From assembly GCA_011033025.1 (NCBI GenBank), contig WFMF01000051.1:62001-126000 (forward strand): 64,000 nucleotides of DNA, given 5' to 3'. Positions 16,855 to 48,012 of this stretch are shown here, piece after piece; the stretch's first letter is position 1; every line of letters begins with the position of its first letter. The DNA is from Beroe forskalii (lineage: Eukaryota; Ctenophora; Nuda; Beroida; Beroidae). A model generated the notes under the pieces. That model was not told the origin of the DNA. It was given only the letters and a program-made list of their open reading frames with translations, and did no database searches. Made by a program: the position numbers and the translations under genes.

Positions 16855-18095
16855 GGCTAAATCCTATAATATGCAAACCACCGAAGAACGCCGAATCGGC
16901 GCCTATAGTTTTTCTAAGGCGCCTAACCGGCACCTATAGGCGGTACGGCTTTTAGGCGCCTATAGTTAACATGTGTCGGTGAATAGGCGCGGAAAAGCGC
17001 CTTTACACCGCCTATCGGCGCCGTCAGCGTTTTTTTACGCCTATAGGCGCCTACGTTTTTCATCGCCTATAGGCGCCGATACTGGTTTTTGTTTTCAGCG
17101 TTGTCCTAAGTATCGGCGCAGATATTGATCTCTAGCAATCTGTGTTCTTCCTTCTTTTCTCGGCGCTTATAGGCGCCGATGAATTAAGGCAGCGCTGAAT
17201 TGGCAAGGACGAGTTTTATTAGCTGAGCTTCGAGTCAATTATTAGCCAAAGTACTAAATTCATTGTCCTAAATTGGGCTAGAGTTAGGGTTTGGGTTTGG
17301 TTCAGGGTTTGGGTTAGGGTTAGGGTTTGGGTTAGAGTTTGGGTTAGAGTTTGGGTTAGGGTTTGGGTTAGGGTTTGGGTTAGGGTTTGGGTTAGGGTTT
17401 GGGTTAGAGTTTGGGTCTTGAACCCAAACTCTAACCCAAACCCTAACCCAAACCCTGACCCAAACTGCAAACCCGGCCCTAACCCAAACCCTAACCCGAA
17501 CCCTAACCAAAACTCTAACCAAAACGCAAACCCAAACCCTAGCCCTAACCCAAACCCTAACCCAAACCCTAACTCTGGCCCAATTTAAGAGTTTAGGACT
17601 GCTTTATTTCATCGGCGCCTGTAGGCGCCTATAGAATTTAGGACGATGAATTTAGTACTTTGGCTGATAATTGACTCGAAGCTCAGCTAATAAAACTCGT
17701 CCTTGCCAATTCAGCACTGCCTTAATTCATCGGCGCCTATAGGCGCCGAAAAAAGAAGGAAGAAGACAGATTGTTAGAGGTCAATATCGGCGCCTATAGG
17801 CGCCGACACTTAGGACATCACTGAGGACAAAAACCAATATCGGCGCCTATAGGCGATGAAAAACGAAGGCGCCTATAGGCGGTCAAAAAAACGCCGACGC
17901 CGCCGATAGGCGGTGTATAGGCGCCTTTCGGCGCCTATAATATAGCCGCCGATAATTCGATACCTATTACTTATTAACTATAGGCGCCTTTAGGCGCCTA
18001 AAAGCGGTACCGCCTATAGGCGCCTAAAAATTTATAGGCGCCAATTCGGCGCTTTGCGGCGCCAAATCGGCGTTTTCCATGAATAGTATTTAGCC
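16855..18095. mobile_element. Foldback element with GGCGCCTATAGGCGCC arrays
   Basis: A 1.24-kb near-palindrome. Ends GGCTAAATCCTATAATATGC and the complement of GGCTAAATACTATTCATG. Both arms hold many copies of the self-complementary GGCGCCTATAGGCGCC, mirrored landmarks (AGCTGAGCTTCGAGTCAATT on the left, its complement on the right) and a central telomere-like inverted array. Copy A lacks it: A goes directly from GTTGTGCGTGG (1847-1857) to AATCTTTTGAGGCGCGG. A clear target duplication could not be settled. Relatives lie at 43581-44239 and 63149-63470. Confidence 0.85.
17281..17580. repeat. Head-to-head TTAGGGTTTGGG array
   Basis: The left half is (TTAGGGTTTGGG)n with TTAGAG variants on the + strand. 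At about 17417-17423 it flips, through GGGTCTTGAACCC, to the CCCAAACCCTAA complement, which runs to about 17578. It is the loop-proximal core of the foldback element 16855-18095. The track ORFs (runs of NPNPNP or RVRVRV) are translations of the array. Confidence 0.9.
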
Positions 18096-25584: not shown

Positions 25585-27149
25585 ACACTCAAAATTAATG
25601 ATTCTTGTGAGTAAGGTTACTGCGAATGATTCGCCCAGGTTGCTGTCAGGGTTAGGAGGCTGTGCATCCTTTCTTCTTCTTCACAGCGGAAGAGTAACGT
25701 TCCGTTCTGGTTCTTCCTGAACTCGTAGAAGGAAGCACCATCAATGCTCAACTTCTTCTTCCCCGTTGAAGTTGGAAGAGTGGTGAAGGCTGGTTGAGGC
25801 CTTCCAGCCAACCCAGAAGTTGCAGGGACAGCTGTCGGAGGTCGGGGGATAGGACGGTGAGCAGCAGGGGTGAAGATGGGCAGTAGGTCATTGGTGAAGG
25901 GCAGGCAGTCACGGGAGGTGATGGGGAGTAACGCTGAGGCAGCTCTGCTGGGCAGCTTCTGTTGCAGTGTCGGCAGCAGTTTCGGGAGCTGTAGCGGTGT
26001 CACTGGAGGCTGCAGCGGCAATGTCGGCATTGTCAGCAGGAGGAGGAACAGGCAGGAGTGTTGCTCTAAGTCAACATCAGGGAAGGGATTGATGGATGGT
26101 TGTTGGGGAGACGCAGTTGGTGTGGTAAGGGACGGACAGGTTGAAGCAGCTTCACGGGAGTGGAGTGGGGGGAGATGAGGCAGGGGAGTTCAGCATTGAC
26201 AGGAAGGTTTCTCCATTGGGGTTAAGTTGTGGGTGTCGAAACAATACTGTAGAAACGATGAAAGATAATATCATTGCATTTGCTGGGTGTATATATACCG
26301 ACATGACATAACTTCAGTGCTCGTTACTGACAGGATGATATGTGATCTGAGAGCTTATTCAGACTTTGAGCCTTAGGTGTGTCAGCGGCATTAACAGGGT
26401 TCGGATATCCTACATGATATGGAACAGATCACATGACCCAATCTACATCGATCTACATCAATGTCATTTTCACACCTTCTGCGTGTGAATCGACTCGTGA
26501 TACAGTATGAATTGAATTGTATTGCGTATTGCGCCCTTGTTGGGCTGAGATTAAATTTTCTTAACACTTAGATTCGCCCAGTTGAGCCGCTCATTTGCGC
26601 TCAATTATCGTTTAGTTAGAGCATTTCGGGGGTCATAAAGCGCAAAATTTATTTGAAATAAGCTGATTTGAGTCAGAGTGCAACTGAGTGGTGACTAAGC
26701 GCAAATTTTCGCTCAGTTACTCTAACTCAGTTAAAAAAACCTTGCGCTGAAGAGAACTTCCGATTTGCGAATTGTTTTCAGCAGGAATTTACTCTTATTT
26801 GGATGAAAATTCATCCTGCACGCATAATGCATATAAAATCAATAATGGTCTATAAGTTAAATAATATATTATCAATGAATATGATAGTTCTATTGTTATA
26901 CTTCTATTATAGTTTCAAGGGTTCCATGGGAGTATCAGTATGGGTCTCCCAACATTCCCACTCCAAAGTATTATAGTTTGGAGCCGCTGTGTTCCCAGAA
27001 TGAGGGACAAAGGTGGGGACAAGGTGGGGACAAAAGTGGGGACAAGATGGGGACAAAAGTGGGGACAATCGGTCGCCCCGACCGTGGGATGCCTAACGCT
27101 CTCTCGGCTCACGCAGTACTTGTCCCCATTCTCGGAGATTGTCCCCTTC
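25585..27149 (-). repeat. Left arm of the 1.57-kb inverted repeat
   Basis: Reverse complement of 45776-47351 along its whole length with a few small indels. The outer edge is ACACTCAAAATTAATG at 25585; the inner edge is GATTGTCCCCTTC at 27149. It contains a decayed FLYWCH ORF reading outward (minus strand), its TATA-like promoter (GTATATATAC near 26290) and, near the inner edge, a GGTGGGGACAA tandem of 11-12-bp units at about 27005-27070. The transposase-like gene starts 50 bp beyond the inner edge. Confidence 0.93.
25595..26216 (-). pseudogene. FLYWCH ORF, frameshifted left-arm copy
   Basis: Aligns with the intact ORF 46706-47341. The start codon (26214-26216) and stop (25595-25597) are at corresponding places. 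By-eye differences include a lost CT in the zinc-finger region (CGCTGTGAAG here, CGCTGTCTGAAG on the right), a shorter C-run (TTACTCCCCATC versus TTACTCCCCCATC) and a one-base loss near the N-terminal coding part. The longest remaining frame (25617-26030) loses the second Cys and the C-terminal His pair, so this copy should not make a functional FLYWCH finger. Confidence 0.85.
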
Positions 27150-27198
27150 TTGTGAGTATATATTCAAAATTGCCAAGAGTTCCGACACACTTCTAACC

Positions 27199-30100
27199 AT
27201 GGTTTCATTCAGTTCACTCGTTGGGTCACCTCAGGCTTTTCAGTCAGATCGCTTGTTGACCTCCCGAGAAGTCATGAGGCTCTTCCTATTCGAGAAGCAG
27301 CGTTTGGCTACCTCTTCTAACGACGCTGTTTTTTCCTCAGTTGCTGACATCATTGTGCCTTATCTTCAGTCCCGGGGATATACTACCGTCCAACATCGTA
27401 ATGTTCACAGGTGGGTAAACAATAACTGAAATGCTGAAGGAAAATTATAGTATAACTGGGTCCGACTTCAATTTACCGAAGTTTCTTCGTTTCGTTTGTA
27501 CAGAATACCGTGAAATAATTGAATAATTCATGATTTATCATTTCAGGGCGGTGGACAAGTTGTTCCAGTCTGTACGTCAAGCATGCAAGTGGAAGAATCA
27601 GCAGAGGGTGACAAGCTTCGAGCTCAATCTTCTCAACCTCTTCATGGTCAACAACTCCAACTTTGGTACACCCAAGCCGTGGTGAGTACCATTTATATCA
27701 ACTCATTTATAGATTGAAATGAGGACGCGTAATTATCATATTTACATCTATTTCCATGTTCTATCTCTGATCATTGACATGTTTTGGGTTTGTTAATATT
27801 TCGGAAAATACCTAGTCTAATGTTATTGTTATACCTGTCTTCCCGTACCCATCGTTATACTCTTCCCTAATATTATATCGTTTTTCAGTGGGGCGAGTGC
27901 TGGTGGGGGCAGTGTTGGCACCACACCTGATGCGAGCAGCTGTAGTGAACAGGACGACTTCGATGCTGCTGAGGAACCTCCAAGCGACCCTGACTCTGAG
28001 GTTTGTGTTCATCACTGTAGAAATAGCTTAAAATAGATAATTTACTTCAAATGAAAAATGACCGATTGTAGCGTAGAGTTAATTTGCCTTTGTACAATAT
28101 TATTATATTATGCAGGCTGCAATACCTAACTATGATTTTGAATATCAAATTCCAACTTCTATAATTTCAATAAAATACTCATCAACTGTTTGAAACATCA
28201 CCATAATCAGTACCAATATAAGTTCATTATTCTATGCCTTTGGTGAAATCATGACTCTTATTTACAGGAGGAGTATCGCCCGGAGGATCATCCCGAGGAC
28301 ACACCACGGCGGAAGAAGTGCAGAATCCGCCTTCCGGAGACAGCCAAGATGCTTGACCGGATGGACGTGGGCCCGGAGTGTGGAGCAAAGATCCTGTCTT
28401 CACTCTGCAAGGACATGGATGTCAGGGACGAAGACGGACATCGGGTGGTTCTCACAGCTTCCAAACTACGAGGGGAGACAGACCGGCAGGGGAAGGAGTG
28501 CTACAAGCAGCTGCAGAATCTCAAAATACACGGTACTCTTTTCATTATTTCTTATCATTTTATATCAATGATAGAATTCATGTATGATTTCCAGTGGTCA
28601 TTATGGCCCGTATCTGAGTGTATCATAAGAAATTGAAAGCTTATAAGTTATCCAAGTTAATAGAACTTTATATCATGGAACAGTGGCTAGCCTGAACAAT
28701 TGAAATATTATATCGTCCCAAACGCCCTTATTTGACTATTGAGTTATTGATTGATAATAAAAATTGAATAATAGTTTCAGGTTGCGTCTTTATTTTGTTT
28801 CACACACATTATTACCTCATGAATTCACAGTCATAACTCACTCATACATTCACGATACACCCATGTCACACCATGAACTCACGCTAGATCACACCCATGA
28901 ACTCACGCTCAGATACACATACACTCACGATACACTCATCTACCCACTCACGCTACATCATCTGTACACATACATACACTCATCTACCCATATACTCACT
29001 ACATCGTCTCTACACTCAATACACTCATCTACCCTACATCGATATACCCATACACTCACGCTACATCCATCATCCCATACACTCACCCTAAATCCATCAA
29101 CCCATGAGCTCACGCTACATCCATCATCCAATACACTCACGTTACACTCATCTACCCATACACTCGTGCTACATCCATCATCCCATACACTAACATAAAT
29201 CCTATACCCATACACTCACGCTACATCCATCATACCCATACACTCCATACCCATACACTCAAGCTACACTCATCTACCCATACACTCACGCTACACTCAT
29301 CTGCCCATACACTCACGCTACATCCAATAAACTCACCCACTCACCTACCCATTCACTCATCTACATCCGTTTTACCCATACACTCAAGCTACACTCATCT
29401 ACCCATACACTCACGCTACACCCATAGACCCATACACTCACGCTACATCCATAAACCCATACGCTCACGATACACTCATCTACCAATAAACTCACGCTAC
29501 ATCCTATACCATAACTCACCTAATCCCATATACCACTCACGCTACACCCATCTACCCATACACTCACCCTAAATCCATCAACCCATGAGCTCACGCTACA
29601 TCCATCATCCAATACACTCACGATACACTCATCTACCCATACACTCGTGCTACATCCTTATACCCATACACTCAAACTAAATCCATCAACCCATGAACTC
29701 ACGCTACATCCATCATCCCATACACTCACGATACATCCGTATACTCATACACTCACGCTACACTCATCTACCCATACACTCACGCTACACTCATCTACCC
29801 ATACACTCACGCTACATCCATCTACCCATACACTCACGATACACTCATCTACCCATACACTCAAGCTACACTCATCTACCCATACACTCACGCTACACCC
29901 ATATACCCATACACTCACGCTACATCCATAAACCCATGCGCTCCATCCATCTGCCAATAACTCACTACATCATCTACCCATATACTCACGCTACACCCAT
30001 CTACCCATACACTCACGCTACATCCATCATCCCATATACTCACGATACACTCATCTACCCATACACTAACGCTACATCCATATACCAATACACTCACGCT

Positions 30101-33100
30101 ACATCCATATACCCATACACTCACGCTACACTCATCTACCCATACACTCACGCTATACCCATATACCCATACACTCACGCTACATCCATATACCAATATA
30201 CTGATATACCCCACATACACAATCTGCCGCTACATCCATCATCCCATACACTCACGCTACATTCATCTACCCATACACTCACCCTACTACCATCATCCCA
30301 TACACTCACCCTAAATCCATCAACCCATGAACTCACGCTACATCCATCATCCCATACACTCACGATACACTCATCTACCCATACACTCACGCTACATCCA
30401 TATACCAATACACTCACGCTACATTGATATACCCATACAATCACGCTACATCCATCTACCCATACACTCACGATACACTCATCTACCCATACACTCAAGC
30501 TACACTCATCTACCCATACACTCACGCTACACCCATATACCCATACACTCACGCTACATCCATAAACCCATACGCTCACGATACACTCATCTACCAATAA
30601 ACTCACGCTACATCATAATATGTACCCATATACTCACGCTACACCCATCTACCCATACACTCACGCTACATCCATCATCCCATATACTCACGATACACTC
30701 CGCCCTACTACTACCCATACTACCCTTGCTACATCCATCATCCACACTCACCACGCTCACATCCATATACCCCATACACTCACGCTACACTCATCTGCCC
30801 ATACACTCAAGCTACACTCATCTACCCATACACTCGCTACACCATCATGCCCATACACTCACGCTACATCCATAAACCCATACGCTCATGATACACTCAT
30901 CTACCAATAAACTCACGCTACATCATAATATGTACCCATATACTCACGCTACACCCATCTACCCATACACTACACTCCATCGTTCCATATGCTCACGATG
31001 CTCGTCTGCCATACGCTCATCTACGTCCATATGCCAATACCTCACGCTACATCCATATGCCCATACACTCATACACTCGTCTACCCATACACTCCGCTAT
31101 ACCCATATGCCATGCACTCACGCTACATCCATCTACCCATACACTCACGCCAGCCTGACCCATATCCATCCCATACACTCACGCTGCGTTCATCCACCCA
31201 TACACCAAATAAACCCCTACCACATCCGCTACACTGATATACCCATACAACTCACGCTACATCCATCATCCCATACACTCACGATACACTCATCTACCCA
31301 TACACTCACGCTACATCCATATACCAATACACTCACGCTAAATCCATCCAACCCATACAATCACGCTACATCCATCATCCCATACACTCACGCTACATTC
31401 ATCTACCCATACACTCACCCTACATCCATATACCCTTACATTTTATACGTCAATGATATGCCCATAATGTATGATTTCAGTGGTCATTATGGCCCATATC
31501 TGAGTGTATCATAAGAAATTGAAAGCTTATGTTATCCAAGTTAATAGAACTTTATATCATGGAACAGTGGCTAGCCTGAACAATTGAAATATTATATCGT
31601 CCCAAACGCCCTAATTTGACTATTGATTTATTGATTGATAATAAAAATTGAATAATAGTTTCAGGTTGCGTCTTTATTTTGTTTCACACACATTATTACC
31701 TCATGAATTCACAGTCATAACTCACTCATACATTCACGATACACCCAGACACACATGTCACACCCATGAACTCACGCTAGATCAATCTACCCATACACTC
31801 ACGCTACATCATCTGTACACATACACTCACGATACACTCATCTACCCATACACTCACGCTACATCATCTGTACACATACACTCACGATACACTCATCTAC
31901 CCATACACTCACGCTACATCGTCTGTACACATACACTCACGATACACTCATCTACCCATACACTCACGCTACATCGATATACCCATACACTCACGCTACA
32001 TCCATCATCCCATACACTCCCGCTACATCCATCATCCCATACACTCACACTAAATCCATCAACCCATGAGCTCACGCTACATCCATCATCCCATACACTC
32101 ACGATACACTCATCTACCCATACACTCGTGCTACATCCATCATCCCATACACTAACGCTACATACCTATACCCATACACTCACGCTACATCCGTATACCC
32201 ATACACTCACGCTACACTCATCTACCCATACACTCAAGCTACACTCATCTACCCATACACTCACGCTACATCCATAAACCCATACGCTCACGATACACTC
32301 ATCTACCAATAAACTCACTCTACACTCACCTACCCATACACTCACGCTACATCCGTTTACCCATACACTAACGCTACATCCATCTACCCATACACTCACG
32401 CTACATCCATCATCCCATACACTCACGATACACTCATCTACCCATACACTAACGCTACATCCATATACCAATACACTCACGCTACATCCATATACCCATA
32501 CACTCACGCTACATCCATATACCCATACACTAACGCTACATCCATCATCCCATACACTCACCCTAAATCCATCAACCCATGAACTCACGCTACATCCATC
32601 ATCCCATACACTCACGATACACTCATCTACCCATTCACTCGTGCTACATCCTGATACCCATACACTCAAACTAAATCCATCAACCCATGAACTCACGCTA
32701 CATCCATCATCCCATACACTCACGATACACTCATCTACCCATACACTCACGCTACATCCATCATCCCATACACTCACGCTACATCCATTATCCCATACAC
32801 TCACGCTACATCCATCTACCCATACGCTCACGATACACTCATCTACCAATAAACTCACGCTACACTCACCTACCCATACACTCACGCTACATCCATCTAC
32901 CCATACGCTCACGATACACTCATCTACCAATAAACTCACGCTACACTCACCTACCCATACACTAACGCTACATCCATATACCAATACACTCACGCTACAT
33001 TGATATACCCATACACTCACGCTACATCCATATACCCATACACTAACGCTACATCCATCATCCCATACACTCACCCTAAATCCATCAACCCATGAACTCA

Positions 33101-36100
33101 CGCTACATCCATCATCCCATACACTCACGATACACTCATCTACCCATACACTAACGCTACATCCATATGCCAATACACTCACGCTACATCCATATACCCA
33201 TACACTCACGCTACATCCATATACCCATACACTAACGCTACATCCATCATCCCATACACTCACCCTAAATCCATCAACCCATGAACTCACGCTACATCCA
33301 TCATCCCATACACTCACGATACACTCATCTACCCATACACTCACGCTACATCCATATACCAATACACTCACGCTACATTGATATACCCATACAATCACGC
33401 TACATCCATCATCCCATACACTCACGCTACATTCATCTACCCATACACTTACGCTACATCTATCATCCCATACACTCACGCTACATCATATGTACCCATA
33501 CACACACGCTACATCCATCAACCCATGAACTCACGCTACACTCACCTACCCATACACTCACGCTACACTCACCTACCCATACACTCACGCTACATCCATC
33601 ATCCCATACACACACGATACACTCATCTACCTATACACTCACGCTTCATCCATATACCCATACACTCACCCTAAATTCATCAACCCATGAACTCACGCTG
33701 CATCCATCATCCCATACACTCACGATACACTCATCTACCCATACACTCATGCTACATCCATATACCAATACACTCACGCTACATCGATATACCCATACAC
33801 TCACGCTAAATCCATCAACCCATACACTAACGCTACATCCATCATCCCATACACTCACGCTACATCCGTTATCCCATACACTCACGATACACTGATCTAC
33901 CCATACACTCGAGCTACATCATATGTACCCATACACTCACGCTACACTCACCTACCCATACACTCACGCTACATCCATCAAACCATGCATACACTCACGC
34001 TACATCCATCTGTACCCATACACTCACGCTTCACTCATCTACCCATACACTCATGCTACACTCATCATCCCACACACTCACGCTACATCCGTAAACCCAT
34101 ACACTCACGATACACTCATCTACCCATACACTCACGCTGCATCCATCTACCCATACACTAACGCTACATCCGTATACCCATACACTCACGCTACATCCAT
34201 CTACCCATACACTAACGCTACATCCATCTACCCATACACTAACGCTACATCCATCATCCCATACACACACGCTACATCTGTATACCGATACACTCACGCT
34301 ACACTCATCTACCCATACACTAACGCTACATCCATATACCCATACACTCACCCTAAATCCATCAACCCATGAACTCACGCTACATCCATATACCAATACA
34401 CTCACGCTACATCGATATACCCATACACTCACGCTACACTCATCTACCCATACACTCACGCTACACTCATCTACCCATACACTAACGCTACATCCATCAT
34501 CCCATACACACACGCTACATCCGTATACCCATACACTCACGATACATCGATATACCCATACACTCACGCTACACTCATCTACCCATACACTCACGTTACA
34601 TCCATTATCCCATACACTCAAGCTACATCCGTATATCCATACACTCACGTTACATCCATACACTCATCTACCCATACACTCACGATATACTGATATACCC
34701 ATACACTCACGCTACACTCATCTACCCATACACTAACGCTACATCCGTATACCCATACACTCACGATACACTCATCTACCCATACACTCACGCTACATCC
34801 ATCAACCCATACACAACGATACATCCATCTACCCATACACTAACGCTACATCCATCATACCCACACACCACACGATACACCATCTACCCATACACTCAAC
34901 GCTACATCCATATACCAATACACTCACGCTACATCCATATACCCATACACTCACGATACAGTCATCTACCCATACACTCACGCTTCATCCATCTGTACCC
35001 ATACACTAACATGCAACATCCATTATCCCTATAACTCACGCTACATCCATCATCCCCATACACCACGCTACATCCATCAACCCATACACTAACGCTACAT
35101 CCATCACCCATACACTCATCCCATACTCACCATATCCCATACCCTACACCGCTACACTCATCTACCCATACACTAACGCTACATGCATTATACCCATACA
35201 CTCACGATACACTCCATCTACCCATACACTAACGCTACATCCATCTACCCACACCACGCTACATCCATTGATATACCCATACACTCACGCTACATCCGTA
35301 TACCCATACACTCACGATACACTCATCTGCCACGCTAAATCCATCAAAACCATACACTCACGCTACATCCGATATACCCATACACTCACGCTAAATCCAT
35401 AAACCCATCTCACGATACACCCATCTCCCATACACTCACGCTACATCCATATATCCCATACACTCACGATACACTCATCTACCCATACACTCGAGCTACA
35501 TCATATGTACCCATATACTCACGATACACTCATCTACCCATACATTAACGCTACATCCATCTACCCATACATTAACGCTACATCCGTATACCCATACACT
35601 CATGCTACACTCATCTACCCATACATCCTACCCTACATCCACATACCCATACACTCACGTTACACTCCATCATCCCATACACTCACGATACACCCTAAAT
35701 CCATCAACCCATGAACTCACACCACATCTCATCTACCCATACACTAACGCTACATCCATCTACCCATACACTCACGCCATCACCCACACTGACGCTTCAT
35801 CCATCTTACACTCACGCTAAATCCATATACCCATACACTCACGCTACACTCATCTACCCATACACTAACGCTATATCCATCATCCCATACACTCACGCTA
35901 CATCCGTATACCCATACACTCACGATACACTCATATACCCATACACTCATGCTACACTCATCTACCCATACACTAACCATATACCCCACACTCACGATAC
36001 ACTCATCTACCCATACACTCACGCTACATCCATCTACCCATGCACTAACGCTACATCCATCATCCCATACACTCACTCATACCCATACACACTCCATCTA

Positions 36101-39100
36101 CCCATACACTCACGCTACATCCATCTACCCATACCAAAACGCTACATCCATCATCCCATACACTCACGCTACATCCGTATACCCATACACTCACGATACA
36201 CTCATCTACCCATACACTCACGCTACATCCATCAAACCATACACTCACGCTACATCGATATACCCATACACTCACTAAATCCATCAACCCATACACCAAC
36301 GCTACATCCATCATCCCATACACTCACGCTACATCCGTTATCCCATACACTCACGATACACTCATCTACCCATACACTAACGCTACATCCGTATACCCAT
36401 ACACTCAAGCTACATCCATATACCCATACACTCACGATACACTCATCTACCCATACACGCAACGCAACATCACCCATACATCCTACATCCATCTACCCAT
36501 ACATAACTTCGTCCATCTGCCCATCACGTTATATCCATACACTGCACGATACACTCATTATCCCATACACTCACGCTACGTCCGTTATCCATCATCCCAT
36601 ACACTAACCATGCCATCCATACACTCAGATACTCATATGTACCCATACACTCACGCTACATACACCTACCCATACATCCATCAAACCATGCACTCACGAT
36701 ACATCCATCTACCCATACACTCACGATACATCTACGTACCCCATACACTCACGCTACATCCATTATCCTTACACTCACGCTACACTCATCTACCCATACA
36801 CTCACGATACACTCATCATCCCATACACTCACGCTACATCCATCATCCCATACCTCACGCTACATCCATGTACCCATACACTCACGCAACATCCATTATC
36901 CCATACACTCACGATACACTCATCTACCCATACACTCACGCTACATCCATCATCCCATACACTAACGCTACATCCATCATCCCATACACTCACGCTACAT
37001 CCATCTACCCATACACTGACGCTTCATCCATCTACCCATACACTCACGCTTCACTCACCTACCCATACACTCACGCTACATCTATGTACCACACTCACGC
37101 AACATCCATTATCCTATACACTCACGATACACTCCATCTACCCATACACGACCCTACATCCATCATCCCATACACTAACGCTACATCCATCATCCCCATA
37201 CACTCACATCCATCTAAACACTCATCTCATCCATCTACCCTCACACGATACACTCATCCTACCCATACACTCACGCTACACTCATATACCCATACACTCA
37301 CGCTACATCCATCAAACCATACACTCACGCTACATCCATCTGTACCCATACACTCACGATACACTCATATACCCATACACTAACGCTACATCCATCATCC
37401 CATACACTAACGCTACATCCATCATCCCATACACTCACGCTACATCCATCTACCCATACACAAACGCTACATCCATCATCCCATACACTCACGCTACATC
37501 CGTATACCCATACACTCACGATACACTCATCTACCCATACACTCACGATACACTCATCTACCCATACACTAACGCTACATCCGTATACCCATACACTAAC
37601 GCTACATCCATCATCCCATACACTCACGCTACATCCGTATACCCATACACTCACGCTACATCATAATATCCCATACACTCACGATACACTCATATCTACC
37701 CATATGAACTCGTAGCTACATCACGTATACCCATACACTCACGATACACTCATCTACCCATACACTCACGCTACATCCATCAAACCATACACTCACGCTA
37801 CATCGATATACCCATACACTCACGCTAAATCCATCAACCCATACACTAACGCTACATCCATCATCCCATACACTCACGCTACATCCGTTATCCCATACAC
37901 TCACGATACACTCATCTACCCATACATCCGATACATCATATGTACCCATACTCACGATACACCCATTACCCATAACGCTACATCTACCCATACATTAACG
38001 CCCATCCGTATACCCATACACTCACGCTGTCATATGGACCCATACACTCACGCTACATCCATTACACTCATCTACCCATACACTCACGATACACTCATCT
38101 ACCCATACACTAACGCTACATCCATCTACCCGCCACACTCAAACTACATCCATCATCCCACACTCACGCTACATCCGTATACCCATACACTCACGATACA
38201 CTCATCTACCCATACACTCACGCTACATCCATCTACCCATACACTCACTACATCCGTCATACCCATACACTCATCAACATCCCACCTCACACTCACGATA
38301 CACTCATCTACCCATACACTCACGCTACATCCATACCCATACACTCACGCAACATCCCATACTCCATACACTCACGCTACATCCGTATACCCATACACTC
38401 ACGATACACCATCTACCCATACACTCACGCTACATCCATACCCACACCTCACACACTCATCTACGCAACATCCATCTACCCATACACTGACGCTTCATCC
38501 ATCTACCCATACACTCACGCTTCACTCACCTACCCATACACTCACGCTACATCCATGTGTACCCATACACTCACGCAACATCCATTATCCCATACACTCA
38601 CGATACACTCATCTACCCATACACTCACGCTACATCCATCATCCCATACACTAACGCTACATCCATCATCCCATACACTCACGCTACATCCATCTACCCA
38701 TACACTGACGCTTCATCCATCTACCCATACACTCACGCTACATCCATATCTACGCATACACTCACGCTACACTCACCTACCCATACACTCACGCTACATC
38801 CATCAAACCATACACTCACGCTACATCCATCTGTACCCATACACTCACGATACACTCATATACCCATACACTAACGCTACATCCATCATCCCATACACTA
38901 ACGCTACATCCGTATACCCATACACTCACGATACACTCATCTACCCATACACTCACGCTACATCCATCTACCCATACACTAACGCTACATCCATCATCCC
39001 ATACACTCACGCTACATCCGTATACCCATACACTCACGATACACTCATCTACCCATACACTCACGCTACATCCATCTGTACCCATACACTCACGCAACAT

Positions 39101-42100
39101 CCATTATCCCATACACTCACGATACACTCATCTACCTATACACTCACGCTACATCCATCATCCAATACACTCATGATACACTCATCTACCCATACACTCA
39201 CCCTACATCCATATACCCATACACTCACGCTACATCGTATATACCCATACTCCCATATACTCACGCTACACTCACCTACCCATACACTCACGCTCCATCC
39301 ATAAACCCATACACTCATGCTACATCTATCTGTACCCATACACTCACGCTACACTCATCTACCCATACATCCATCTACCCATACTCCTTTGATTCACCCA
39401 TATAGTACGCCCATCTGCCAATTTACACACGATAAATCCATAGTTATACACTCACGATACAATCTTCCTACACTCATACGCTCACGATACAGATGATCTA
39501 GGTAAACTCATACAATCACTGTACAAAGATATACTCATGGTACACGCACTCATAGGTACACATATGGTACACTCATTCACTATACACACATATTTTATGT
39601 TTTTACCATATTATCTGTATGATTGTGTACCTGCCATTAACTCATTAATGTATGTTCATATGATGAGTGCATACACTCATTGAATGTAAACCTACACTCA
39701 TGTACACATGTTCACTCACCAATCGCCATACTAACATTATACAATCATGGTACCTACACAAATGTACTCATGGTAGGTTCTCTCATATCACTCACGATAC
39801 ACTCACAAACGGGCATCATCTTATCGTAACTCTGTTTTGTTTTCAGGTCTGTTCTTTGACGGAAAAAAGGACAAGACAGCAGTTCGGAACAAAGAGGCTA
39901 AGCGGAATGACATAGAGACAGAGAGTCACTGTTCGCTGGTTCTTCACTACCCTGACAGGACGATGGAGGAGAAGCAGGAAGGCAGATACATCGGGCACAT
40001 CAACCTGGAGAATGGCACCGGTTTGTAGTAACAGTAACTTATTGCCTTGTTCCTCTCACATTGGATGCAACTCATCAGCTCGCTGCCACGAATTAATGTC
40101 GAGTCGATTGCTTTGATTCTAACGAGAAAATAATTTTTAAACTTTGAAGGTATCATTTGACTATTTAAATTTATACTTTGTCTATCTCAGGGGTGAACAT
40201 AGCGTGTGGTATCATGGATTATGTGGAGGCAGCCAAGCTAGACCTTTCGCCGTGGGAACTGCTGGGCTGTGATGGCACAGTGTCGAACACTGGTCATTTG
40301 GTAAGTTATTATATTAAAGCAATAAATTATAATTTCTAAAACCTAGATATTGTTGAGATTAATAGGTTGCGATCTATTTTCAGGTGAAATAGCAATCCTT
40401 TACCACATTTTAGGACTTTTTACAAACTTCTATTTCAGGAAGGAGTGCATGCACACCTGCAGCGCATTTTGAAGAAGCCCCTATTCCTCTCCGTATGTTT
40501 GCTTCACCATGTTGAGCTTCCCCTTCGCCACCTGGTTGAGGAGATTGACGGACCAACCTCAGGTAAACACAGTTCTTCATTAACCAGTACCTGAACCAAT
40601 AGTTTTTGGTACCACTTCACCTATGAAACACTCATACAATCACGAAAGGTGTATTATACGTGTTAATATAATGTCCTATACTGAAAGTTGAAATCCCCTG
40701 TAGGCCTCTATTCAAACTTTTTAAGAGCTATCTTCTACTCGTTTAGTTTCCTCTTTAAACAAAAAGCTACATTCAATAACTCATCAGGTCCCGAGCAGTT
40801 CAGCGGCTGTATTGGAAAGCTCTTGAAGACAGATGTGTGGGAGCTCCCTGTCGCTGATAACTTCGAGACGTTCACTGTCCCGGATTTTCCTGATGTGCCA
40901 CAAGCAGTGAAGAAGGAGCTGTCCAACGATGCACTCTACCTCTTACGAGTGTGTATCGCCATCATCACAGGTAAGTTCTAGTGCAGTTCAATTACTTTTG
41001 ACTTGAAAAATAGATCATATTAACTTCTAATACATTCTTTTATCTTTATATCATATTGCCATGTTCAAAATTGACTGCAGTCATCACCCGAAACAGGACA
41101 TGTCCTGTTTCGGGTGATGTCTCTCAAAGATACTTCCGAAGTAAATCTGTATTCTGATTTCTAAACTTCATTTTATATCTAACCAGAGTTCTCCTCAGGA
41201 ATCGTTCCAGCTGATCTGAAGCATGCAAAGATTGGCAAACTCTGTCAGAGCCGGTGGCTGACATTGGCGAGTCGTTTGTGCCGGTTACACATTTCTGGGA
41301 CATGCACTGACCCTAATCTACGCTTGTTGGTGAACTACATCGTCCAGGTGTACTACAAGGTACCTAAACAATAAGTATATTTTATAAAATATTCCTTTGT
41401 GGCGCTCTCCTGGATAGCCATCTCATAGTACTACCTAAACGATAGTTATATAGATTACGAGAAATTTACCTTTGCCTAGAGTAACTTAATGAATTTCAGT
41501 ACTTTCTTGAAACAGCTCCATGGATAACCGTTTCAGACTTATGCCAACATAAAGATGAAGTGCACGCTCGTGTCGGGACCAGGGCACTTACTCAACGAGA
41601 TCCAGATGATAAGGGAACACTGTGAGGCTCGGGAGAGGGACATCGCTCTGAAGACAGTGGAGTATAACAACTACTTCGCACATCCTGAGGCGATCCTGCT
41701 GGCTATGCTTGGTAACTATAATGCAAAATACAATCATAATATGATTGTATTATAAAGTTACGATCATATTACGATCATATTACGATCATATTACGATCAT
41801 ATTACGATCATATTACGATCATATTATTTAATTAAGCATATTTAATTAAGCATGGACTGATCGGACTACAGCACTTCTGTACTGTAGTTCGTAGATTAAA
41901 ATACATGTCTCTGGACTTTTTTAAGAAAATAAACCTATCAGATTAAATCATCAACTACCTATTTACTATTTTAACTCCTTCAGGATCCGACGATGAGTCT
42001 GACCGCAGGAAAGCTATCAGCATTATCAGTGACATACGAGGATTCTCACGGCGGACAACCAGAGTTTTCCTAAAGCCAGTCCTCAACCGCACTGCCGTCA

Positions 42101-42841
42101 CAGTTTTCCAGCTGGCCAACATCAAGAAGGTAAGCACTATTGTAATTTATACAGGATAAATCCCTTGAATATATGTAGGTATAGGAATTCAATGAAGGTA
42201 ATTATGTTATGACGAATTGTGGGAGTGGGACTGGTCAGTGCAGTCTCGGCAGATTGTCATATTGATATTCATAATGGTTCGCTCTGCACCTTCTGGTGAT
42301 AATGTTGCGATGTATACGCCTCATTGTTGTACTAAAGTACTAAGAGTATCTGAGTAGGTATATTGATATTGAACAGAGCAAGTGGCTGATCAAATCATGT
42401 TTAAAATTTTATCAAAACATGAAAATTCATTAGTTCATTGCAGTTTATTTCATGACCAATAATACCTCACTCTTGATAAATCAGCCATTTACTAATTTCT
42501 TTTTGATATTGATAAACTATAATTAAGTAATCGATATATTTCAGTTCACTAGTGGGAAGGGCCGGCTCTCAGGACAGTGGGTCTTTCTTACGCAGTCGAA
42601 GGGCTGGCAGCTGGTGACTGAGCCTCCGATGACACTCGGCAAGCCCCTGGACGAGTATCTCACCACGCCGCTGAAGATCAACTACCCTTGCCACAGCCAG
42701 TCAGTTGAGAGAGCAGTTGCACTGACATCATCATCAGTCAAGAGGAAGGTTGGCTACGAGAAGCAGAGAAACTTGGGGCTTGTGAAGTACAACAGCAGGA
42801 AGGAGTACAAAGGAAAGGTGGCTGTGAAACGGTTTGGATGA
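27199..42841 (+). CDS. Spliced transposase-like protein, 12 exons, 701 aa
   Basis: Exons with GT-AG borders and matching phases: 27199-27410, 27547-27681, 27889-28000, 28268-28532, 39847-40020, 40191-40300, 40439-40562, 40788-40970, 41187-41359, 41537-41711, 41984-42129, 42545-42841 (2106 nt, 701 residues plus stop). The start ATG (AACCATGG) has a good context. Visible blocks: N-terminal helical region (1-116), acidic/Pro-rich linker (about 120-170), LFFDGKKD at 243-250, GCDGTVSNTG at 325-334, HHVELPLRHL at 359-368, SRWLT at 460-464, NNYFAHPEAILLAML at 540-554, and a C-terminal PCHSQSVERAV block. I recall the same block order from a widespread family of uncharacterised insect and cnidarian proteins. 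D246/D250, D327 and the following C..H and RW blocks resemble an RNase H-like, hAT-type transposase plan; that is inference. No frameshift or stop was found, so it may be functional. It lies between inverted arms, suggesting it is the transposase of that element; a domesticated host gene is the alternative. Confidence 0.85.
28566..28860 (+). repeat. Unique intron block, first copy of a 2.88-kb duplication
   Basis: Contains TGTATGATTTCCAGTGGTCA, then TGGAACAGTGGCTAGCCTGA and GGTTGCGTCTTTATTTTGTT. The same 290 bp recurs at 31450-31745, also running into 27-bp units, so a segment of about 2,885 bp including non-repetitive intron was duplicated in tandem. Confidence 0.9.
28840..39500 (+). repeat. 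10.7-kb minisatellite, 27-bp unit, inside intron 4
   Basis: The unit is close to CCCATACACTCACGCTACAT plus a variable 7-nt tail (CCATCAT, CCATATA, TCATCTA and similar). It repeats about 390 times. Units keep 27-bp register for long stretches, so all frames stay open and produce 9-residue repeats on both strands (SVWVDGCSV-like on -, THTLTLHPS-like on +). The + strand is very poor in G and has one CpG per unit (CACGCT). Register is clean at 31.7-34.8 kb and ragged at about 34.8-38.5 kb. The array is wholly contained in the 11.3-kb intron between exons 4 and 5 of the transposase-like gene. Confidence 0.95.
31450..31745 (+). repeat. Unique intron block, second copy of the 2.88-kb duplication
   Basis: Interrupts the minisatellite. 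Nearly identical to 28566-28860, differing by a handful of substitutions and small indels (for example AAGCTTATAAGTTATCC versus AAGCTTATGTTATCC). The low divergence indicates a recent unequal exchange, or an assembly duplication. Confidence 0.9.
41082..41119. repeat. Perfect 38-nt palindrome in intron 8
   Basis: Two 19-nt arms, CATCACCCGAAACAGGACA and its exact complement, meet with no spacer. It lies in the intron between exons 8 and 9. Could be a tiny foldback insertion. Confidence 0.9.
41760..41825. repeat. 11-bp tandem repeat in intron 10
   Basis: ACGATCATATT repeated six times just after exon 10, followed by a duplicated ATTTAATTAAGCAT. A simple minisatellite. Confidence 0.9.
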
Positions 42842-43580
42842 CTTTGATGTACTAGGCATATAACGTATTGAATTTGTATAATGTATATTGTATTTGAATT
42901 TGATGTATTTGTATATACTTAAATGAGATTATAGAATAGTAAGTATTATAGACTAGTGTTTTGGAGGTTATAAGCAGATTTATGATAGGTTGATACCTAT
43001 TTAATGTAATACTATAAATAGATTGTAAATATTTGCATAGTTTTAACTTTTATAACGTGACAATGGGAATGAATTAATTGATTCATTTTTTCGGCAGATT
43101 AGGTATGTTATTATACTTATATAGTTGTCTCTATCACAGATATATTTTTTCAAGATAGAAATTTGTTGCGATTAAGTTAGTAAGTTAATAAGCTTAAAGT
43201 TAAACCAAATTAGGTAAATAGTAAAATTAGTTATATTTCAATGACAGTTGCTTTACTTAAAATTTAAGTTTATATTCGAGAACCTTGTACCTAATTATAC
43301 TATATAATTATGTATGTTTCTACATTGTAATGATACATAGGTACGCTAACTAATTGATTATTTTTCAGAATGACATTTCTTATTTGACATTTATCTCCAG
43401 TGGTTCACCGGGGACGGGATTTCGCCGGGTATTTTTGACTCCTCAATTTTGCTGGGGCCGGGATAAACCGCATCATTGAAGTTGAACTTTTGCCAGAGCC
43501 GGGATTGAAAATGAAAAATTATGCCGGGGATGGTATTTAGAATTTTGTACAAAATTTACTGCACTATAGATATAATTATT
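42842..43580. other. AT-rich DNA downstream of the transposase-like gene
   Basis: Presumed 3' UTR and spacer. No canonical AATAAA was seen close to the stop. At about 43395-43540 there is a small cluster of GCCGGGAT/GCCGGGGAT motifs of unknown nature. Confidence 0.4.
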
Positions 43581-44239
43581 GGCACAATCCCACCTATGCA
43601 AACCACCGATTCGGTGCGCATTCGGCGCTTATAAACACGAATAAGCACCGATAGGCGTCATCGTTTATAGGCGACTAAAGGCGCCAAAAATTAATATATA
43701 TATTTTTTTTATCGGCGGTCGTCGCCGCTGATGAGCGCCTATGCAACGCCTATCGGCGCTTTCGGTGCTTTTCGACCGCTTATCAGCGCCTATGTTTTCA
43801 ACCGCATTATAATTATATAGGCGCCGATATTGATTTCAAGCAATCTATGTTATTCCTCTTTTTTGATGAATTAAGAGAATGAGTTTAATGAGCTGAGCTG
43901 CGAGCCCATTATCGGCCAATGACCTAAATTCATTGGTTCAAATTCTATTGGGTCAGGGTTTATTTGGGTTAGGGTTTGGCTTAGGATTTGAGTTAGGCGC
44001 CTATATAGGCGGTTGTTAAAAACGTAGGCGCCGATAAGCGGTCGAAAAGCGCCACCAGGCAGTGCATAGGCGTTAATCGGAGCCGAAGATCGCCCATAAA
44101 ATTAAAAATATAAATTTTTGGGCGTCTATATGCGCCTATAAGTATAAGCGGTGACGCGTATCGGCGCCAAAAAACTTACAGGCGCCGATTCGGCGCTTAT
44201 CGGCGCAGAATCGGCGATTTGCATAAGTGGGATTTTGCC
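43581..44239. mobile_element. GGCGCC-family foldback element
   Basis: TIRs GGCACAATCCCACCTATGCA and the complement of GGCAAAATCCCACTTATGCA. The body has GGCGCC/TATAGGCGC motifs in both orientations and a reduced TTAGGG-like core (GGGTTAGGGTTTGGCTTAGG near 43970). Same family as 16855-18095, more diverged. Inserted between the transposase-like gene and the right inverted arm. Confidence 0.8.
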
Positions 44240-44474
44240 TTATTATCAGACCTATAATTACAGGCGCCAACCGGCACCCAATCGGTGATCTAGCTGGATA
44301 TGGAATGAGAACGGACAATTCCTCTAAGACAATTCAACTCCCGACACTTCGACGCATACCATAATATTTCACCTCTATAAGTAAAACGTCAGGGTAAGGG
44401 TCTGTGCTACAGTTCGGTTAGGGTAAGTATCTGGGTTAACGTCAGGGCTTTTCGTTATAAGGTTAGGATTATGG

Positions 44475-45151
44475 TAATACTAGCAGGCCCGTTGGGCTCG
44501 CTAGATAATACAGAACCAAATACTAAGCTCATAAAAAAGTTTATGAAGGAGCAAATTCGTTGGTTACTTTTAGTATCATGCTGGACCGGGCAAGTTTTGA
44601 TAATTATGATTTTCGATTGTATGATGAAGTCAAATCTGAAAATTAAAACCGAGTATCGTACTCATATTGAACGTTGAATTAATCATTGATTCAAAGGCAA
44701 GAGCAGTTTTCCAAATTCGCAATGTACTATGCCCAAATCCGATTCAATTTGATTTTGCTTTTGGCCAATCTTGAATTGCTCTAAATTCACACTAATTATT
44801 TCCGTTTATATTATCAACTCAGCATTGATTTAAATCGACTGAAATCTGCCACAGATCTATGAGATGCCATCGGAAATAACCTCCACGATGCCAGCCATAC
44901 CCGTTCTCTATCTTTAGATCTTGAATTTGAAATGAAAAACAGTAAACACGTCGTTCTTTTAAACGCTACAACGCAGCAGTTAACAACGTATCAGAAAGCA
45001 CTCTCATAGAACTGAGCTTAACTTGCACGTGCAGAATATCTGTATCCATAGCAACGGCGCTACTTAGCCCGGCTTAGCCTTTGTTTCTCTTGATATCATC
45101 TTGGCAAGCTCAAATTTAATTGTATACGGCGGCACAAACATTATTCACGTG
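44475..45151 (+). repeat. Interspersed repeat, inverted relative to 51929-52710
   Basis: Starts ATACTAGCAGGCCC and ends CATTATTCACGTG. Matches 51929-52710 in reverse orientation, with strong identity in the last 200 bp (for example TTGGCAAGCTCAAATTTAAT and GTTTCTCTTGATA) and weaker identity inward. Short inverted motifs ACAATTCAACTCCCGACACT (44330) and its near complement at about 45190-45212 bracket it. No intact ORF. Confidence 0.65.
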
Positions 45152-45225
45152 TGACTTTACTTTATGTAATAGATGCAGGACAGAGAGATAAAGTGCCGGG
45201 AGGTGAATTATCGTTGTTGAAACAG

Positions 45226-45540
45226 GTCCGTAGCAAGGAATTTTCCGGGGGCCCTGCGAAGTGAACAAGCTTCGGCCGGAGTTTGGGGGCGCAGCCCCCA
45301 AAAGTGTACCGGGGCCCCAGAAATATTTTTGAAAACTATGGTGTTCTGGACTGTTTTTACAATAAAATTGACCGGAAGTCCGGAAGGCAGTTTCTTCTGT
45401 CAAAATTAGAGCAAAATTGTCGCAGTTTCCTTTTTTGTGAGGGGGCCACAGCCCCTTATAGTTATACGGCCCTCCCCCTAAATACATGCCTGTGTTGAAA
45501 TGTCGGAATCTCGTCCACCGGGCCGGGGATAGAATTGTCA
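45226..45540. repeat. GC-rich dispersed repeat fragment (tentative)
   Basis: Begins CCGTAGCAAGGAATTTTCCG, contains GGGGGCGCAGCCCCC (hairpin) and ends near a CCGGGCCGGGG run. The opening and the hairpin resemble a repeat type common in invertebrate genomes, from memory only. Its overlapping ORFs are not credible genes. Confidence 0.4.
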
Positions 45541-46623
45541 AAAAAAAGATCCCGAAATAAAACCTACGGCAATTCTTGAAGTACGCTGTCTGCGATGTCT
45601 AGTATCCACTAAGCTCTAACAGAGCCTGCTGAGCTTACATATATAGAAATAGAATTGCAATTGGATAACACTTAAGTATAAGTCGATTCATAATACTCGA
45701 TTAGTCTATAACTCGATTAAAACTGTATCGATGCTTGATTCATAATATATTAAAATTTAAATCATCCCGTTCATTGAAGGGGACAATCTCCGAGAATGGG
45801 GACAAGTACTGCTTGAGCCGTGAGAGCCTGAGGCATCCCACGCTCGGGGCGACCGATTGTCCCCACTTTTGTCCCCACCTTGTCCCCACCTTGTCCCCAC
45901 CTTGTCCCCACCTTTGTCCCTCATTCTGGGAACACAGCGGCTCCAAACTATAATACTTTGGAGTGGGAATGTTGGGAGACCCATACTGATACTCCCATGG
46001 AACCCTTGAAACTATAATAGAAGTATAACAATAGAACTATCATATTCATTGATAATATATTATTTAACTTATAGACCATTATTGATTTTATATGCATTAT
46101 GCGTGCAGGATGAATTTTCATCCAAATAAGAGTAAATTCCTGCTGAAAACAATTCGCAAATCGGAAGTTCTCTTCAGCGCAAGGTTTTTTAACTGAGTTA
46201 GAGTAACTGAGCGAAAATTTGCGCTTAGTCACCACTCAGTTGCACTCTGACTCAAATCCGCTTATTTCAAATAAATTTTGCGCTTTAGACCCCCGAAATG
46301 CTCTAACTAAACGATAATTGAGCGCAAATGAGCGGCTCAACTGGGCGAATCTAAGTGTTAAGAAAATTTAATCTCAGCCCAACAAGGGCGCAATACGCAA
46401 TACTATTCAATTCATACTGTATCACGAGTCGATTCACACGCAGAAGGTGTGAAAATGACATTGATGTAGATCGATGTAGATTGGGTCATGTGATCTGTTC
46501 CATATCATGTAGGATATCCGAACCCTGTTAATGCCGCTGACACACCTAAGGCTCAAAGTCTGAATAAGCTCTCAGATCACATATCATCCTGTCAGTAACG
46601 AGCACTGAAGTTATGGCATGTCG

Positions 46624-46633
46624 GTATATATAC
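46624..46633 (+). promoter_or_regulatory. TATA-like element before the FLYWCH ORF
   Basis: GTATATATAC lies about 73-82 bp upstream of the ATG at 46706. It is mirrored in the left arm near 26290. Position and sequence suit a core promoter; no experimental support. Confidence 0.5.
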
Positions 46634-46705
46634 ACCCAGCAAATGCAATGATATTATCTTTCATCGTTTCTACAGTATTGTTTCGACACCCACAACTTAA
46701 CCCCA

Positions 46706-47341
46706 ATGGAGAAAACCTTCCTGTCAATGCTGAACTCCCCTGCCTCATCTCCCCACTCCACTCCCGTGAAGCTGCTTCAACTCCGTCCGTCCCTTACCAC
46801 ACCAACTGCGTCTCCCCAACAACCATCCATCAATCCCTTCCCTGATGTTGACTTAGAGCAACACTCCTGCCTGTTCCTCCTCCCTGCTGACAATGCCGAC
46901 ATTGCCGCTGCAGCCTCCAGTGACACCGCTACAGCTCCCGAAACTGCTGCCGACACCGCAACAGAAGCTGCCCAGCAGAGCTGCCTCAGCGTTACTCCCC
47001 CATCACCTCCCGTGACTGCCTGCCCTTCACCTCCAATGACCTACTGCCCATCAACTTCACCCCCTGCTGCTCACCGTCCCATCCCCCGGCCTCCGACAGC
47101 TGTCCCTGCAACTTCTGGGTTGGCTGGAAGGCCTCAACCAGCCTTCACCACTCTTCCAACTTCAACGGGGAAGAAGAAGTTGAGCATTGATGGTGCTTCC
47201 TTCTACGAGTTCAGGAAGAACCAGAACGGAACGTTACTCTTCCGCTGTCTGAAGAAGAAGAAAGGATGCACAGCCTCCCTAACCCTGACAGCAAACCTGG
47301 AGCGAATCATTCGCAGTAACCTTACTCACAAGAATCATTAA
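46706..47341 (+). CDS. FLYWCH-type zinc-finger protein, intact right-arm copy
   Basis: 211 codons, single exon. The first about 150 residues are low-complexity, rich in Pro, Thr, Ser and Ala, with no recognisable fold. The C-terminus fits the FLYWCH finger: KKLSIDGASFYEFRKNQNG, then C181, C188 and the terminal H208-K-N-H211, giving the C-x6-C...H-x-H metal-ligand pattern. The usual aromatic W/Y before the first Cys is replaced (LLFRC). The protein stops at the last ligand. FLYWCH fingers bind DNA or protein and are known as accessory domains in some animal transposons, notably MULE-type; a role in binding the element's own ends is inference. ATG chosen as the first in-frame Met matching the left-arm start. 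Confidence 0.8.
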   Translation: MEKTFLSMLNSPASSPHSTPVKLLQLRPSLTTPTASPQQPSINPFPDVDLEQHSCLFLLPADNADIAAAASSDTATAPETAADTATEAAQQSCLSVTPPSPPVTACPSPPMTYCPSTSPPAAHRPIPRPPTAVPATSGLAGRPQPAFTTLPTSTGKKKLSIDGASFYEFRKNQNGTLLFRCLKKKKGCTASLTLTANLERIIRSNLTHKNH

Positions 47342-47351
47342 TTTTGAGTGT

Positions 47352-48012
47352 TATTTATATCTTACTTATATTTTATGTGTGCTTGCGATAAATCTATAAA
47401 TTTTCTGATTACATCCGACCTACACAAGTCTACAGTTACACACCGACACTACACACGGGAGTACAATGTACATTGTCCCCTAGTGAGCAGGATTGTCCCC
47501 TGTCGTTCTACATGCTCAGCAGCATATCATACTGGTCCTGTCATTTGCTTCATCCCACCCCAATAGCCCATACTATGTCGATCAGTTTATCAAATGCTCA
47601 GCATCATCACCAGGCAAGGCCACTTCACCCTCATTAACATTCTGAGCTAGTGTCAGTGTGTGATATTTCAATAAACACGGCCTTTGTTGAAAACTATATT
47701 TGAATTCCTTGAAATATTGGTCAAGTACACCCTACTTCGATCTAGCAAATATCGGTCAAGTACACCCTACTTCAATGCATATCTCGCGGAACTGCAGCAG
47801 AATCTTGCGCGCGCGGATATAAGCGCGCGCGTAGAATCCGCGGATGGTCACGCCATTCGCGCCTTCCATACAAGTATGGCCGATACAAATCGTCAACGCT
47901 CCAGGGGTTCCCGGGGTCCAATTTCAAAAAACCGGATATCCTCGGTCTTGTCTCACCGAGATCTATCGCTCAGGGGTTGAGCACCAAAAATTTATTTTTT
48001 TTGGTGCACCCT
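47352..48012. other. Spacer after the right arm, candidate poly(A) site
   Basis: AATAAA at 47670-47675, about 330 bp after the FLYWCH stop, could serve that gene. A direct repeat containing CGGTCAAGTACACCCTACTT occurs twice near 47722-47782, and a GCGCGCG-rich hairpin lies near 47810-47835. The 98-codon ORF at 47684-47980 runs across these repeats and is not a credible gene. Confidence 0.4.

What the first reader, a model, noticed from the sequence alone, without database searches (positions are those of the whole stretch)
25585..47351. Candidate 21.8-kb DNA transposon with a FLYWCH ORF in each long inverted arm
Two 1.57-kb arms, inverted and nearly identical, face outward around an apparently intact spliced transposase-like gene that begins 50 bp inside the left arm. 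Each arm carries its own promoter-like site and FLYWCH ORF, intact on the right and frameshifted on the left. A terminal repeat that encodes a DNA-binding protein, with a multi-intron transposase in the centre, would be an unusual architecture. I know of no described element with this layout. No target duplication was seen at the outer edges, so exact ends remain open.
Basis: partly seen in the sequence, partly recalled or inferred. Interest (0 to 1): 0.88.

Follow-up and report, generated by a model that had tools for sequence, protein, structure and literature searches.

The report
Foldback transposon with DNA-binding-protein gene arms

Summary
Two inverted 1.57-kb arms surround a spliced 12-exon, 701-residue gene; the right arm has an intact FLYWCH ORF. 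The arms belong to a repetitive foldback-type DNA transposon family (20 further loci examined) ending in TAGGGTGCACC, with 9-bp target duplications in 6 of 10 loci that show both ends and 8 bp in 2 more. The left end is lost, so this copy shows no duplication. In the fetched stretches none of the 20 has the 701-aa gene or a complete FLYWCH domain, yet they share its arm modules, inner junction (19 of 20) and intron-4 minisatellite (20 of 20), as internal-deletion derivatives would. No MULE match lies within 30 kb of any of 60 copies of the terminal 15-mer. The 701-aa protein shows an inferred D-D-CxxH-E pattern without database support; its own-genome protein search did not complete. Best reading: a split transposase, FLYWCH binding the ends and the 701-aa protein cutting. 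A FLYWCH gene on another contig lies between inverted copies of the terminal 15-mer, which suggests, but does not show, that this is the FLYWCH site.

The parts
25585..27149 (.). left arm, truncated just past the FLYWCH stop codon; family terminus and flanking LINE half missing
25595..26216 (-). left FLYWCH ORF, broken by several indels; frame open for 48 of the 63 domain residues
26282..26306 (-). TATA-like stretch upstream of the left FLYWCH ORF; no match to it in the 20 other loci
   Evidence: sequence; PROM matches of the 20 loci never begin before q24
26307..26568 (.). conserved upstream block (PROM), left
26569..27149 (.). inner arm modules MID and INN, left
27199..27410 (+). exon 1 of 701-aa gene
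27547..27681 (+). exon 2
27889..28000 (+). exon 3
28268..28532 (+). exon 4
29034..39369 (.). 27-bp minisatellite in intron 4 (28533-39846), same unit as in the arms of the other copies
39847..40020 (+). exon 5 (candidate D1, residue 246)
40191..40300 (+). exon 6 (candidate D2, residue 327)
40439..40562 (+). exon 7 (CxxH, residues 356-359)
40788..40970 (+). exon 8
41187..41359 (+). exon 9
41537..41711 (+). exon 10
41984..42129 (+). exon 11
42545..42841 (+). exon 12 with stop codon (candidate catalytic E, residue 658)
45583..45775 (.). inner junction block (JUN), kept wholly or in part in 19 of 20 other loci
46706..47341 (+). intact 211-aa FLYWCH ORF
47379..48013 (.). terminal block of the right arm, ending ...GGTGCACCCTA at 48013
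47949..47963 (-). terminal 15-mer GATCTCGGTGAGACA, candidate FLYWCH site
48014..49735 (+). LINE part into which the right end is inserted; uninterrupted copy at 56353-58076 (-), whose ORF matches RVT_1

Best explanation
The locus is the left-truncated, gene-bearing member of a foldback-type cut-and-paste DNA transposon family. Shown: common termini, 8-9-bp target duplications, long inverted modular arms, many copies. Inferred: the central spliced gene encodes the DDE-type catalytic protein (D246, D327, C356xxH359, E658). Inferred: the FLYWCH protein, encoded outward from its own TATA-like promoter inside each arm, is the separate end-recognising subunit and binds the terminal motif GATCTCGGTGAGACA. 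The other copies are non-autonomous, with an internal deletion, broken FLYWCH and minisatellite in the arms, and are served in trans. This copy has lost its left terminus, so it could supply proteins but probably cannot move itself.
For: Family with inverted arms; exact 9-bp duplications in 6 of 10 loci with both ends, exact 8-bp in 2 more; inner junction in 19 of 20 and the 27-bp minisatellite in 20 of 20; of the first 100 listed of 223 exact minisatellite 27-mers, 95 lie in arm-bearing loci, counted by eye; a complete open FLYWCH domain in only one arm of the 21 loci scanned, the window's right arm, that is, in the one copy with the 701-aa gene; no MULE match (0 of 46) within 30 kb of any of 60 copies of the terminal 15-mer; the 15-mer flanks the C202 FLYWCH gene on both sides; FLYWCH dN 0.24, dS 1.39 against C202 over 57 codons; complete 12-exon frame; CxxH is conserved in several transposase superfamilies (PMC4763223, passages).
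Against: No database hit for the 701-aa protein: Pfam to E 10, PDB only one hit at E 0.59, viral contigs none. Its alignment to hAT pieces is weak: score 47 with piece 1 (shuffles 37.5 +/- 5, 30 of 500 as high) and 40 with piece 2, which is chance (148 of 500), so E658 rests on the eye alone. The gene is absent from the fetched stretches of 20 of 20 relatives, and no second copy of its exons was listed at DNA level, though only 40 of 904 candidates were scored. Own duplication untestable, left end lost. The window's FLYWCH, PROM, INN and JUN modules match the other copies at only about 72-94% in most pieces.
Confidence: 0.58

Rival explanations
1. Captured host gene: a foldback element mobilised by FLYWCH-MULE (Phantom-type) transposases elsewhere in the genome picked up an unrelated 12-exon host gene between its arms, as MULEs tend to acquire host gene fragments (PMC6446971, abstract start in a listing).
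For: The genome holds 46 MULE and 65 FLYWCH matches, 18 of the 46 MULE matches within 3 kb of a FLYWCH match. Target duplications of 8-9 bp fit the Mutator range. The gene is in none of the 20 other loci and no second DNA copy was listed (40 of 904 candidates scored).
Against: 0 of 46 MULE matches within 30 kb of any of 60 copies of the terminal 15-mer. The gene's intron 4 carries the family's own minisatellite. The protein has an in-order D, D, CxxH, E pattern by eye.
Confidence: 0.22
2. Nested element: the 701-aa gene is the transposase of a different DNA transposon that inserted into the foldback element, as a hAT did in the C359:544-554 kb copy.
For: Nested hAT proteins seen in L047. The gene lies 50 bp from one arm and about 2.9 kb from the other.
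Against: No second pair of inverted termini around the gene is among the 25 longest of 55 inverted pairs shown by the repeat search (arms under 60 bases were not sought). Intron 4 bears the family minisatellite.
Confidence: 0.12
3. Chance or assembly artefact: inverted duplication around an unrelated gene, with the left arm mis-assembled.
For: Indel-rich left FLYWCH and an abrupt left edge; lost LINE half.
Against: Paired inverted arms are usual in this family: in 18 of 20 fetched loci both arms are in view, so a left arm is expected at this place.
Confidence: 0.05

Closest known systems
Tm1 Mutator/Foldback family of root-knot nematodes (PMC3169594; abstract and passages read)
   Same: Composite repetitive inverted repeats, 9-bp duplications, FLYWCH involvement, a single intron-bearing gene copy in the isolates examined among many non-autonomous ones
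   Different: Tm1-A has FLYWCH and MULE domains fused in one 496-aa protein; here FLYWCH is a separate gene inside each arm and the central protein has no MULE match
Phantom MULEs (PMC6446971, passages)
   Same: FLYWCH in some, 8-10-bp duplications, minisatellite in some
   Different: No MULE domain here; FLYWCH not fused to the central protein
Rehavkus (PMC6446971, passages)
   Same: 9-bp duplication, minisatellite, long inverted repeats (26-400 bp there)
   Different: No PHD finger and no MULE-like domain found by Pfam; arms far longer; minisatellite in the arms and in an intron; no Rehavkus sequence could be compared
Tetris and Galileo foldback elements of Drosophila (PMC4079207 passages; PMC3688188 abstract start in a search listing)
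   Same: Modular long arms with tandem repeats; 8-9-bp duplications in the complete Tetris copies; internal binding sites in Galileo arms
   Different: Tetris copies lack conserved ORFs; Galileo has a P-type transposase with its own THAP domain; no gene in the arms is described in what I saw
hAT elements
   Same: TAGGG-type terminus (recalled); D2 and CxxH align in register with a hAT protein piece, weakly
   Different: mostly 9-bp, not 8-bp, duplication (8 bp recalled as the hAT rule); no hAT dimerisation domain by Pfam

Membership tests
Foldback elements | long inverted arms made of modules with tandem repeats | tested here: met
   (output cut in the middle)
Mutator superfamily (MULE/Phantom) | 8-11-bp target duplication | tested here: met
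   6 of 10 loci 9 bp, 2 of 10 8 bp, 2 of 10 none or ambiguous, for the family; not testable for the window copy itself
Mutator superfamily (MULE/Phantom) | MULE catalytic domain PF10551 in the element | tested here: not met
   no Pfam match in the 701-aa protein; 0 of 46 genomic MULE matches near a family end
Phantom | FLYWCH domain fused N-terminally to the transposase | tested here: not met
   FLYWCH is a separate 211-aa ORF in the arm
Rehavkus | 9-bp duplication and minisatellite | tested here: met
Rehavkus | PHD finger in the transposase | tested here: not met
   no Pfam match
Rehavkus | transposase homology | not testable with these tools
   no Rehavkus sequence held
hAT | 8-bp duplication | tested here: not met
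   9 bp in 6 of 10, 8 bp in 2 of 10
hAT | hAT dimerisation domain PF05699 | tested here: not met
   the same library finds it in a real hAT piece
DDE/RNase H-like transposases | D, D, E triad with CxxH after the second D | tested here: inconclusive
   positions D246, D327, C356, H359, E658 by eye; hAT piece 1 alignment: 30 of 500 shuffles as high; piece 2: 148 of 500
FLYWCH zinc-finger proteins | PF04500 over cut-off | tested here: met
   27.3 bits against 23.6 for the right-arm ORF

The most novel reading that the evidence does not exclude
A DNA transposon with a split transposase whose end-recognition subunit (FLYWCH) is encoded by the terminal repeats themselves, one gene copy per end, while the catalytic subunit belongs to an undescribed DDE lineage; a host FLYWCH gene on C202, bracketed by the same terminal motif, would be a domesticated subunit still carrying its binding sites.
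Probability: 0.3. Interest if true: 0.78.

Novelty: new variant of a known kind. Interest (0 to 1): 0.55.

Why it matters
In the nearest described elements (Phantom, Tm1) the FLYWCH domain is fused to the catalytic protein. A binding protein encoded inside each inverted end would mean that the ends carry their own reader, and would give one reason why long foldback arms are kept. The shared 15-mer makes the FLYWCH-site prediction directly testable by a simple binding assay, and the C202 gene offers a possible case of a transposon subunit kept by the host together with its sites.

Tried and rejected
MULE transposase as the linked enzyme: rejected by position. Interior of the larger C359:544-554 kb copy as a second autonomous copy: its longer ORFs are a nested hAT. 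Left terminus hidden elsewhere: no terminus-like match just left of the arm or elsewhere in the window's left part, apart from telomere-like repeats at 15.6 and 17.3-17.6 kb that match a repeat stretch of the terminal block; the joined duplication-plus-terminus 21-mer, up to 1 mismatch, has 0 matches in the genome. Other FLYWCH loci as arms of sister elements: of five fetched (L048-L052, out of 65 FLYWCH matches) only L049 resembles the arm FLYWCH; a DNA search with 1 kb of it finds only itself. Relatives of the 701-aa protein: Pfam, PDB, viral contigs without result. PDB search with the FLYWCH ORF: one chance-level hit, E 0.97. From memory only, the 701-aa protein resembles a widespread uncharacterised predicted family of arthropods; this could not be tested.
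Full report
OBSERVATION. The two arms are real: 25585-27149 and 45776-47340, inverted, about 98% identical. Between them a 12-exon gene gives a 701-residue protein with GT-AG at all 11 introns, its start 50 bp inside the left arm. Intron 4 (28533-39846) is almost wholly a 27-bp minisatellite, 29034-39369; 341 bases of the intron's 5' part (28551-28891) recur at 31435-31784, 93% identical, so the array has also grown by larger duplications. The right-arm ORF (46706-47341, 211 aa) passes Pfam's FLYWCH cut-off; the left one is broken.

THE FAMILY. The genome (216 Mb, 1134 contigs, unnamed) holds many partial copies of the arm, mostly as inverted pairs (each of which scored 40 of 86-87 candidates, so the counts are lower bounds). 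I fetched 20 loci (L027-L046). Their outer ends share TAGGGTGCACCAAAAAAATTAAATTTTTGGTGCTCAACCCC with small variations. In 10 of the 20 both ends reach the terminus (within 4 bases); of these 6 have exact 9-bp duplications (L027, L032, L033, L037, L040, L042), 2 have exact 8-bp duplications one base out of register (L030, L034), 1 is ambiguous because one end is trimmed (L041) and 1 has none (L028). The usual module order is terminal block, FLYWCH remnant, upstream block, 27-bp minisatellite, interior, then the mirror image; exceptions are repeated modules in L039 and L042, a missing right FLYWCH in L031 and L032, and L044 and L046, where only one arm lies in the fetched stretch. All 20 have the minisatellite, 18 of them on both sides.

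THE WINDOW COPY. It sits inside a non-LTR retrotransposon: the LINE goes on at 48014, and a copy at 56353-58076 on the other strand, whose ORF matches RVT_1, runs uninterrupted through the site. On the left neither the terminus nor the other LINE half is present in the window, and the joined duplication-terminus 21-mer is nowhere in the genome at up to one mismatch. So the left end has been deleted or rearranged, or mis-assembled, and the copy's own duplication cannot be seen.

WHY THE GENE AND THE ARMS BELONG TOGETHER. (a) The block next to the right arm's inner edge (45583-45775), which is not arm, recurs wholly or in part in 19 of 20 other loci. (b) The minisatellite of intron 4 is the family's: the consensus 27-mer has 223 exact matches in the genome; of the first 100, which is all that the tool lists, 95 lie in arm-bearing loci and 5 at C358:279 kb, where no arm match was listed, counted by eye. 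The other copies show no match to the TATA-like stretch or to the N-terminal half: their FLYWCH matches never go beyond position 351 of 636 and their upstream-block matches never begin before position 24. (d) None of 46 MULE-domain matches lies within 30 kb of any of the 60 copies of the terminal 15-mer. Against: the 701-aa gene is in none of the 20 fetched stretches, and in the DNA search with its 3' half no second copy of an exon appears (41 matches, of which one is the gene itself, 39 are short repeats confined to introns 10 and 11, and one is a 44-bp match inside the gene's own stretch; only 40 of 904 candidates were scored, so a diverged copy could be missed).

THE PROTEIN. No family matched, PDB gave only one hit at E 0.59, viral contigs none; the large protein database was off and the own-genome protein search did not complete (15 calls). 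By eye it has D246 and D327 in short DG contexts, C356-x-x-H359 and E658 in a VER context. The best local alignment with the first hAT piece from L047 puts D327 and the CxxH in register, but 30 of 500 shuffles score as high; the second, C-terminal hAT piece aligns no better than chance (148 of 500) and not at E658. CxxH is described as conserved in several transposase superfamilies and needed for hairpin formation in Kat1 (PMC4763223, passages). I take it as a probable DDE transposase of unassigned lineage.

THE FLYWCH LINK TO THE ENDS. The 15-mer GATCTCGGTGAGACA lies about 50 bp inside the family terminus. It occurs exactly 60 times in the genome, 30 on each strand; the reversed control has 0 and about 0.4 are expected by base counting (the expectation is my arithmetic). 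Counted by eye, 46 of the 60 lie at loci with arm matches, 12 are single sites, and 2 flank one gene on C202. Four of the 12 single sites were fetched and all four are family termini; the other eight were not examined. The C202 pair brackets, in inverted orientation within 850 bp, a FLYWCH ORF that is 65% identical to the arm's over 60 residues, passes the Pfam cut-off, has no second DNA copy, and shows dN 0.24 against dS 1.39 with the arm over 57 codons, by one simple method near saturation. Of 65 FLYWCH matches in the genome only two lie within 3 kb of a 15-mer: the arm ORF and C202; the decayed FLYWCH remnants of the other copies are not among the 65. The left C202 site matches the terminus over about 44 bp (score 42, best of 1000 shuffles 26); the right one matches only over the 16-mer (score 32, reached by 1 of 1000 shuffles). 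Inference: the FLYWCH protein binds this motif. C202 may be a domesticated relative or an old relic; I could not fetch its surroundings.

PLACE AMONG KNOWN THINGS. It works like a foldback element and most resembles Tm1 (PMC3169594; abstract and passages) and, in its minisatellite and 9-bp duplication, Rehavkus (PMC6446971; passages). It fails defining tests for Phantom or MULE (no MULE domain, FLYWCH not fused), for Rehavkus (no PHD finger found) and for hAT (mostly 9-bp duplication, no hAT domain). My paper searches - Rehavkus (8 papers), FLYWCH with inverted repeat and transposon (3 papers), FLYWCH with DNA transposon (8 papers), foldback with minisatellite terms (20 of 65 listed), foldback with NOF and transposase (1 paper) and six phrases for a gene inside the TIR (0 papers) - showed me no element with a FLYWCH gene in its arms; most of these papers I saw only as listings, and the library is open-licence only.

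VERDICT. A real, repetitive foldback transposon family with an unusual gene-bearing copy. Mechanism confidence 0.58; the split-transposase reading with the FLYWCH site is the bold but testable part.

Noticed in passing
window 48014-49735 and 56353-58076: Two inverted, 98% identical copies of a LINE part with 6.6 kb between them; the right one has a 594-aa ORF with RVT_1, the left one is interrupted by the transposon end.
   Followed up: partly
L049:1600-2560 (C202:280599-281559): FLYWCH gene without a second DNA copy, bracketed by inverted copies of the transposon's terminal 15-mer; possible domesticated subunit or old relic.
   Followed up: partly
L047 (C359:546400-551650): hAT transposase pieces (Dimer_Tnp_hAT, DUF4371) nested inside another foldback copy.
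   Followed up: partly
window 17266-17590: Back-to-back inverted arrays of a degenerate TTAGGG-like 12-bp repeat; a similar stretch lies in the terminal block of some family copies.
   Followed up: no
window 7159-9639: Cluster of inverted and tandem copies of a roughly 172-bp unit.
   Followed up: no
G000:C358:278986-279504: Family 27-bp minisatellite where no arm match was listed; possible relic or escaped satellite.
   Followed up: no
genome-wide (C247, C184, C191, C913, C603, C450, C1, C176 and others): FLYWCH and MULE matches close together (18 of 46 MULE matches within 3 kb of a FLYWCH match), as in Phantom elements; not near this family's terminal 15-mers.
   Followed up: partly
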